Assembly: GCA_021790455.1 (NCBI GenBank) | Contig: JAJYDY010000002.1 | Span: 1-47,930 of the forward strand | Direction: 5' to 3' | Length of the DNA: 47,930 nucleotides | From: Microcaldota archaeon | Lineage (GTDB): Archaea > Micrarchaeota > Micrarchaeia > Micrarchaeales > Micrarchaeaceae | Shown here: piece by piece, positions 41,377-43,347 of the stretch | How positions within the stretch are numbered: the first letter of the stretch is position 1 | Layout of the letters: each line of letters starts with the position of its first letter | The notes under the pieces: generated by a model | Seen by the model: the letters and a program-made list of their open reading frames with translations, nothing else | Told to the model about the DNA's origin: nothing | The model's database searches: none | Position numbers and translations under genes: made by a program

Positions 41377-43032
41377 TCAGGAATAGCTGCCGATCTTCTT
41401 TATCTGCTGGTCTGTCAGCTTCTCAAATATCGGCTTTGGCTCCAAGCCTAGATTTAGGACCGGCATTTTCTTAAGATCTTCGAATTTCGGGTCTCGCTCT
41501 ATTCCAAAATACGCCAGCGCCGCCCTGCTGGAATCTGGAGTGAACGGGAAAAGAAGGATCCCTGTATAATATGCAATCTTTGCAAGCAGGTTCATTATTG
41601 TTGAGAAGTCCTTTGCCGCACTCTTGTCATCTTTTGCCGCCTTTGCAAGCACCCATGGCGCCTTTTCGCTCATGTAAGAGTTTCCCAGGTCAGCAATCTC
41701 CACGACCGTCTTGAGCGCATCCCTCAATTCTATGTTTTTGAAGTGTTTTGTGTACTTACTATAAAGTTCATCGAGCTTGCCAGCTACTCCTTCATCGATC
41801 TCAACCCGGCTGTCAAATATTTCCCGATTTGTCTTTATCAGCATAAGTACTCTTTGGAAAAGATTTCCGATTTTTCCATTTAGCATCTTATTTACCGCTT
41901 CTGCAAAGCCGTCCGTAGTGAAATCTGTGTCGGCATTCTCTGGAGCTATGGCCATCAATGCAAATCTCCAATAGTCTGGGTTCTTTACGACAGACAGGGC
42001 CTGCTCTAGGTCCATGCCGACTCCTCTGCTCTTCGAGAATTTCTTCCCTTCCCAGTTTAGGAACTCATACGATCTGATAGTATTTACCATGGAAAATCCA
42101 AGATTGGCGCCTAAAAGTGTTGCTGGGAAGAATATGGTATGGAAAAAGATGTTGTCCTTCCCCATAAATTGTATGAGTTTCGTTTCTTCGCTCATCCAGT
42201 AATTTTCCCATTTTGAATCCTGCCACTCCTTTGTTATTCCTATATATGCTATTGGTGCATCAAACCAAACAAATAATGTTTGATCCTCAAATCCCTTTAA
42301 TGGCACAGGGAAGCCCCATTTGCTGTGCCGACTTATGTCTCTCCTTTTTAATCCATTTTTGAAATATTTTTCGGATTCGTTTATTGCATTTCTGCTCCAA
42401 TTGAACTTTGACCTTTCTTTTACAAATTTTTCAACTTGGGGCTGCAATTTCGCTAAATCTATTGCTATATTTTTGGTTTTTTTGAATACTATCTCCCTTT
42501 TACCGCACAAGGTGCAATAAGGTTCTATAAGATCTTTTGGGTCAAGAATGCTAGAACAATTGTCACATTGGTCTCCTCGTGCTTTTTCAAAGCCGCAAAC
42601 AGGGCATTTGCCTTCTATATAGCGATCGTAAAGAAACAATTTGTCAAAATTGCAATATGGCAAATCTTTTTGCACTTCCTCAATATAGCCATTCTTATTA
42701 AGTGCATTGAATATTTCATATGTTATTTCTTTATTTTGTGCGGTGTGTGTGTTTCCATAATAGGTAAAGTTACACCCAAATGATTCAAATAGCAATTTAA
42801 TCTCTTCGTGCATCTTACCTGCGATTTTTTCGGGCGTAGTTTTTTCTCTTATCGCTTGGATTTCTATAGCTGCTCCATGGACATCAGAACCGCATATAAA
42901 GATGACGTCGTCTCCTTTCATGCGAAGATAATTGGTGTAAATGTCTGCGGGCAAAACAGATCCGACAAAATTCCCAAGATGCGGTAGCGAATATATGTAT
43001 GGTAATGCCGATGTTACTATAATTTTACTTAT
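41377..43032 (-). CDS. metG: Methionyl-tRNA synthetase catalytic subunit, probable AUA start
   Basis: Hand translation from AUA 43032: ISKIIVTSALPYIYSLPHLGNFVGSVLPADIYTNYLR contains the HIGH-equivalent HLGN; KFSKS and two zinc knuckles (CPVC..CDNC / CTLC). First ATG/GTG/TTG is TTG at 42954, after HLGN. Confidence 0.94.
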   Translation of the reverse strand: MSKIIVTSALPYIYSLPHLGNFVGSVLPADIYTNYLRMKGDDVIFICGSDVHGAAIEIQAIREKTTPEKIAGKMHEEIKLLFESFGCNFTYYGNTHTAQNKEITYEIFNALNKNGYIEEVQKDLPYCNFDKLFLYDRYIEGKCPVCGFEKARGDQCDNCSSILDPKDLIEPYCTLCGKREIVFKKTKNIAIDLAKLQPQVEKFVKERSKFNWSRNAINESEKYFKNGLKRRDISRHSKWGFPVPLKGFEDQTLFVWFDAPIAYIGITKEWQDSKWENYWMSEETKLIQFMGKDNIFFHTIFFPATLLGANLGFSMVNTIRSYEFLNWEGKKFSKSRGVGMDLEQALSVVKNPDYWRFALMAIAPENADTDFTTDGFAEAVNKMLNGKIGNLFQRVLMLIKTNREIFDSRVEIDEGVAGKLDELYSKYTKHFKNIELRDALKTVVEIADLGNSYMSEKAPWVLAKAAKDDKSAAKDFSTIMNLLAKIAYYTGILLFPFTPDSSRAALAYFGIERDPKFEDLKKMPVLNLGLEPKPIFEKLTDQQIKKIGSYS

Positions 43033-43347
43033 TCAATCACCTTTTCCTTTAAACCATTCTTTTACTGATACTGTTTGCCTTAATCCATCTTTATGTTTAA
43101 TTTCATTTTCTACTAAAGCCATGAGTTTAAGCATTTCAGACTTTTTATTCAAGGCAAGAGTGTGATGGTTATGTCTATAAGGATAGTCTTGCGAATTTAA
43201 AGTTCCTTTGCGTTTATCGTGGTATATATAGAAGTTTTCTAATCCAAAGTTTAGTAAAGCTTTCTGGGAATCCTTGAGTAAGCTTAAATTATAATTGCCC
43301 AGCGAAAATCTGGGCCTGTGCACTTCCGCATCCTGAAATTTCGTCAA
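43033..43347 (-). pseudogene. LAGLIDADG homing-endonuclease-like C-terminal remnant
   Basis: FQDAEVHRPRFSLGNYNLSLLKDSQKALLNFGLENFYIYHDKRKG...ALNKKSEMLKLM resembles the second LAGLIDADG repeat; too short for an intact two-motif enzyme. Confidence 0.5.

What the first reader, a model, noticed from the sequence alone, without database searches (positions are those of the whole stretch)
43015..43045. metG appears to initiate at AUA
Reading the minus strand back from the track start (TTG 42954), the frame stays open to TGA at 43033-43035 and encodes ISKIIVTSALPYIYSLPHLGNFVGSV, the conserved MetRS N-terminus with the HIGH-equivalent HLGN. It contains no ATG, GTG or TTG. The first codon after the TGA is AUA, preceded by GGTGAT (complementary to the archaeal 16S 3' end) with 3-nt spacing. 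A protein starting at the TTG would lack the catalytic signature. AUU at 43023-43021 is a less well-spaced alternative.
Basis: partly seen in the sequence, partly recalled or inferred. Interest (0 to 1): 0.82.

Follow-up and report, generated by a model that had tools for sequence, protein, structure and literature searches.

The report
Methionyl-tRNA synthetase gene starting at AUA
In this uncultured micrarchaeal genome the only gene found for methionyl-tRNA synthetase has no normal start codon and very probably begins at AUA, placed by a strong ribosome-binding site; relatives and a few other genes show the same layout, so the binding site more than the start codon seems to mark where some proteins begin in this group.

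Summary
metG (minus strand) opens at ATA 43032-43030 directly after an in-frame TGA and has no ATG/GTG/TTG before TTG 42954, which lies beyond the catalytic HLGN. That gap is coding: against congener G009 its 26 codons show 17 synonymous versus 2 non-synonymous changes (p=2e-8), the strongest case among 370 genes. GGTGAT lies 3 nt before ATA; it matches the genus 16S 3' end (AUCACC), and 3 nt is this genome's commonest SD spacing. G009's leader shares only GGTGATTG(G)AATAAG. Its GTG, inside the SD, is in frame there but not here, so an indel rival exists. I find it unlikely, because the Lhr helicase in this same window (ATA 12359) repeats the 3-versus-4-nt spacer difference. Four more metG genes of the order lack a plausible canonical start (GTA, ATC, CTG, GTT). 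grpE (CTG; ATT in four species of one genus) and a MazE-like gene (ATC; ATA in the genome matching Ca. Micrarchaeum harzensis) follow the same SD-N3-codon layout. AUA starts are known in bacteria; I found no archaeal report. Initiation at AUA is inferred from sequence; there are no peptide or ribosome-profiling data.

The parts
41377..43032 (-). metG reading frame, 551 codons plus stop, starting at ATA
   Evidence: complete MetRS from residue 2-5; coding constraint up to the ATA end
43030..43032 (-). proposed start codon ATA (AUA)
   Evidence: first codon after TGA; same column is TTG, TTG, GTG, CTG, ATA in the closest relatives and ATG in many others
43033..43035 (-). TGA: 3-nt spacer between SD and ATA, also the stop of the upstream frame
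43036..43041 (-). Shine-Dalgarno GGTGAT (contains an out-of-frame GTG at 43040-43038)
   Evidence: 16S 3' end of congeners GATCACCTC; spacing 3 is the commonest in this genome
42952..42954 (-). first in-frame canonical codon (TTG), 26 codons downstream, beyond HLGN
43033..43350 (-). upstream open frame in the same frame, weakly LAGLIDADG-like; not needed for the explanation
   Evidence: PF14528 E=0.08, below cut-off; no homolog beyond the same sequence
12357..12359 (-). second AUA start in the window: Lhr-type helicase, SD GTGAT 12367-12363, spacer TGC

Best explanation
metG mRNA is initiated at AUA 43032. The 16S 3' tail (AUCACC) pairs with GGUGAU; the 3-nt spacer then sets AUA in the P site, where initiator Met-tRNA accepts it with a mismatch at the third base. 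The protein would begin Met-Ser-Lys-Ile-Ile-Val-Thr-Ser-Ala-Leu-Pro-Tyr and hold the full catalytic domain. The strong, ideally spaced SD compensates for the weak codon, probably at reduced output. The same design (GGUGNU, 3 or 4 nt, near-cognate codon) is used by a few other genes in this order (lhr, grpE, a MazE-like gene). Shown: the sequence, coding constraint up to AUA, SD complementarity and spacing, recurrence in relatives. Inferred: that AUA is the initiation codon, that it gives Met, the lower efficiency, any regulatory role.
For: Full MetRS frame opening at ATA with no canonical start before the active-site motif; constraint 17S/2N, p=2e-8; SD matches 16S and is at the genome's preferred spacing; G009 keeps only GGTGATTG(G)AATAAG of the leader; same column carries TTG/GTG/ATG in relatives; four more metG genes without a plausible canonical start, G037 GTA, G070 ATC, G075 CTG, G117 GTT; G030 has GGTGAT AGG ATA where two congeners have ATG; same layout in lhr, grpE and a MazE-like gene; AUA initiation with strong SDs measured in S. 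aureus (PMC13009471).
Against: No peptide, ribosome-profiling or read data. In G009 and G003 an in-frame GTG at codon -3 could serve, and one base fewer in the window would be a simple indel. G030 has an in-frame TTG 14 codons upstream. G075 has a GTG three codons in. aIF1, which favours discrimination against such codons in Sulfolobus (cited in PMC6237735), is present and looks ordinary. Initiator tRNA was not found in this incomplete genome.
Confidence: 0.84

Rival explanations
1. The real start is GTG 43040 (MIGISKIIV, as G009 can be read), and the window lacks one base through assembly error or a recent frameshift.
For: G009 reads GTG ATT GGA ATA AGC in frame; the window differs by one missing base. 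P0003 and P0005 were called as MIGISK and MIKISR.
Against: That GTG is inside the SD and has no SD of its own. The Lhr gene in the same window shows the same one-base spacer difference from G009, so two independent errors at the same kind of site would be needed. G013 and G049 use TTG and G141 GTG at the ATA column. G037 and G117 have no canonical codon at all. P0121, from a 3,330-bp contig, ends ...KGKGD like the window's upstream frame; it may be the same assembly lineage.
Confidence: 0.07
2. The codon is really ATG and ATA is a base-calling or consensus error.
For: MSKIIVTSALPY with ATG occurs in other genomes (L027, L028).
Against: ATA stands in the same column in G009; AUA/AUC/AUU recur in lhr, grpE and a MazE-like gene, including in a closed genome whose length matches Ca. 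M. harzensis.
Confidence: 0.03
3. metG starts at another non-canonical codon downstream (AUU 43023 or AUA 43020).
For: These are in frame and upstream of the conserved VTSALPY.
Against: Distance from the SD would be 12 nt or more against a genome-wide peak of 3-4 nt; the relatives' canonical starts sit at the ATA 43032 column.
Confidence: 0.03
4. metG is a pseudogene, or is made by reading through TGA, by frameshift, or by splicing with the upstream frame.
For: An upstream frame with weak LAGLIDADG resemblance ends at the TGA in the same frame.
Against: The gene is constrained over its length (212 S, 150 N) and is the only MetRS found. A -1 slip from GTG 43040 meets the TGA at once. The upstream frame is absent from G009 and has no other homolog.
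Confidence: 0.03

Closest known systems
AUA starts of infC, ccpN and citZ in Staphylococcus aureus (PMC13009471)
   Same: AUA initiation codon directed by a strong SD; conserved in relatives for ccpN; measured at about 10-30% of AUG
   Different: Bacterial IF1/2/3 system; different genes; here archaeal aIF1/aIF1A/aIF2, and no measurement
AUU starts of E. coli infC and pcnB (cited in PMC13009471)
   Same: Near-cognate start in a translation-related or housekeeping gene; grpE of one genus here uses AUU
   Different: infC is autoregulated by IF3, which judges its own start codon; MetRS does not judge codons
Archaeal SD-led canonical starts, e.g. P. abyssi aEF1A GGAGGUGAUUUAAAUG (PMC6237735)
   Same: Same SD core GGUGAU and a spacer of about the same length
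   Different: Start codon is AUG

Membership tests
MetRS (class I, PF09334) | Catalytic domain over its full length with HIGH-like signature | tested here: met
   PF09334 3e-131, profile 2-391; PDB MetRS matches from residues 2-4
Non-canonical (near-cognate) translation start | No usable ATG/GTG/TTG for an intact conserved protein | tested here: met
   first canonical codon lies beyond HLGN
Non-canonical (near-cognate) translation start | SD complementary to the 16S 3' end at working distance | tested here: met
   (16S from congeners; the window's own genome lacks one)
Non-canonical (near-cognate) translation start | Start position and weak codon conserved in relatives | tested here: met
   ATA in G009, CTG/TTG/GTG at the same column in others
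Non-canonical (near-cognate) translation start | Ribosomes actually initiate there, giving N-terminal Met | not testable with these tools
   no peptides or ribosome profiling
infC-type autoregulation by a weak start codon | Gene product itself discriminates against its start codon | not testable with these tools
   MetRS charges initiator tRNA but is not known to judge codons; any feedback is speculative

The most novel reading that the evidence does not exclude
In the order of Ca. Micrarchaeum the SD and its 3-nt spacer, not the codon, define some start sites: about 1% of genes (metG, lhr, grpE, a MazE-like gene) start at AUA, AUC, AUU, CUG or rarer codons, in part conserved across species, and the closest metG clade avoids AUG (none of six genomes has ATG in the column), perhaps to limit MetRS synthesis.
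Probability: 0.5. Interest if true: 0.85.

Novelty: new variant of a known kind. Interest (0 to 1): 0.74.

Why it matters
Common gene callers allow only ATG, GTG and TTG, so such starts are mis-annotated and essential enzymes look truncated: the public call of this MetRS loses 37 residues with the active-site motif. If true, archaeal start selection accepts third-base and first-base mismatches when the SD is strong and well spaced. Two relatives in co-culture (Ca. Micrarchaeum harzensis and Mia14) make this directly testable.

Tried and rejected
Own 16S: not in this incomplete genome; congeners used instead. The genome-contig scan gave only a distant spirochaete. A first genome-wide screen by simple alignment start was useless because close genomes also align in non-coding DNA and antisense frames; it was replaced by a synonymous-excess test, whose ranks 2-5 look like antisense shadow frames (judged by eye). 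Initiator tRNA search found none. Intron, read-through and frameshift readings with the upstream frame were dropped. No archaeal AUA start was found in the literature, but the library holds open papers only. In the divergent MetRS group (L036, L141) the start is unclear (TTC at the column) and was not counted; L023/L049 (GTG in the SD, ACG at the column) were not counted either.

Full report
What is there. On the minus strand metG occupies 43032-41377. Reading up from the protein, the frame holds no ATG, GTG or TTG between TTG 42954 and a TGA at 43035-43033; the first codon is ATA (43032-43030). The 551-residue frame is a complete archaeal-type MetRS: PF09334 matches from residue 5 and profile position 2, and PDB MetRS chains align from residues 2-4, including SALPY..PHLGN. 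It is the only MetRS found in the 84%-complete genome: as a protein query it matches just one other frame, weakly (57 residues of a 969-residue class I frame), and the 491-residue frame on contig C2 reads as CysRS by eye. A public gene call of the same protein starts at ATG 42921 and therefore lacks the catalytic signature.

The gap is coding. I fetched nearly the whole genome and about 650 kb of congener G009, chose reading frames by synonymous excess, and asked for each of 370 genes whether the codons before the first canonical start are constrained. metG is first by far: 17 synonymous and 2 non-synonymous differences in 26 codons, p = 2e-8. Ranks 2-5 look like antisense shadows of other genes (my reading, not tested further). 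Among the remaining candidates grpE and an Lhr helicase stood out.

The ribosome-binding site. The 16S of congeners ends GGATAGATCACCTC, so GGTGAT pairs fully with AUCACC. In this genome the distance from the T of GGTGAT to canonical starts peaks at 3 nt (63 of 138) and 4 nt (26). ATA is at 3 nt in the window and at 4 nt in G009. The two leaders share only GGTGATTG(G)AATAAG; above it the window has an open frame with weak LAGLIDADG resemblance, and G009 has about 1.4 kb with a different, pilin-like frame. SD, spacer and ATA are what was kept.

The serious rival. G009 can be read GTG ATT GGA ATA (MIGISK), and the window has one base less, so its GTG is out of frame. But this GTG is the middle of the SD, and G013, G049 and G141 place TTG, TTG and GTG at the ATA column itself. 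The Lhr helicase in the same window repeats the pattern: GTGAT TGC ATA here, GTGAT TTGT ATA in G009, GTGAT TAC ATC in G128, ATG at that column in G013. Its DEAD domain starts at residue 21 of the frame and the first canonical start is residue 31. Two errors landing in the SD-start spacer of two genes is far less likely than a spacer that tolerates 3 or 4 nt. A -1 slip from GTG 43040 would meet the TGA at once.

Recurrence. Across about 70 metG genes of the order most start with ATG, TTG or GTG near this column, but five have no plausible canonical start: window ATA, G037 GTA, G070 ATC, G075 CTG, G117 GTT, all 3 nt after GGTGAT or GGTGTT (G075 has a GTG three codons in, without an SD). G030 has GGTGAT AGG ATA where two congeners have ATG; an in-frame TTG lies 14 codons up, so it is weaker evidence. 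In G009 and G003 the only nearby canonical codon is the GTG in the SD. grpE reads GAGGTGAT TTT CTG here and in G009, TTG at that column in G001 and G013, and GGTGAT N3 ATT in four species of one genus (in one of these a GTG lies farther up). A MazE-like gene reads GGTGAT ACT ATC here and GGTGTT TCA ATA in G157. G157 has the exact length of Ca. Micrarchaeum harzensis (989,838 bp) and G021 that of Mia14 (952,257 bp), which places the window in their family by the tool's kinship labels. The former genome was closed with PacBio and Illumina data, so assembly error is a poor explanation there.

How it works. Most likely SD pairing fixes the small subunit so that AUA is in the P site and Met-tRNAi accepts it with a third-position mismatch. 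In S. aureus non-canonical starts with extended SDs give roughly 10-30% of AUG (PMC13009471), and prokaryotic non-AUG starts go with stronger SDs (PMC5622118). aIF1, which favours discrimination against non-canonical starts in Sulfolobus (cited in PMC6237735), is present and ordinary-looking, so loss of that factor is not the reason. None of the six closest metG genes (window, G009, G013, G003, G141, G049) has ATG at the column; this hints at selection for low output, but the sequences are related and the point is only suggestive.

Limits. No reads, peptides or ribosome profiles were available. The duplicate public contigs could not be opened as DNA, although a predicted protein from a 3,330-bp contig ends at the same residue as the window's upstream frame. 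The genome-wide rate (3 of about 350 genes by one test, a fourth by a second test against part of G157) counts only genes where a canonical start would visibly damage a conserved protein. The claim of no archaeal precedent rests on an open-access library only.

Noticed in passing
window 12357-12367, minus strand: An Lhr-type helicase in the same window also lacks a canonical start: GTGAT TGC ATA, with ATA or ATC at that column in relatives and ATG in G013.
   Followed up: yes
L096:3965-4519 (+), own contig C38: grpE reads GAGGTGAT TTT CTG; four species of genus g3 have GGTGAT N3 ATT at the start.
   Followed up: yes
L105:4286-5173 (-), own contig C28; G157 about 334,212: MazE/AbrB-like gene with GGTGAT ACT ATC here and GGTGTT TCA ATA in the genome matching Ca. 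M. harzensis.
   Followed up: partly
G157, minus strand near joined position 226,378 and plus strand near 277,215 of its first 400 kb: Possible ACG (Rrp42-like exosome subunit) and CTG starts 3 nt after GGTGAT or GGTGTT.
   Followed up: no
window 43033-43350, minus strand: Open frame with weak LAGLIDADG resemblance between the MCM gene and metG, absent from G009, where a pilin-like frame sits instead.
   Followed up: partly
L079:6007-6082, own contig C19: tRNA-Ile with anticodon UAU; ARAGORN found no CAU tRNA of any kind in this 84%-complete genome.
   Followed up: partly
metG 41377-43032 and relatives: metG is 73% identical to G009 against a genome median of 85%, and several congeners carry only a MetRS of about 30% identity, so metG may have been exchanged between lineages.
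   Followed up: no
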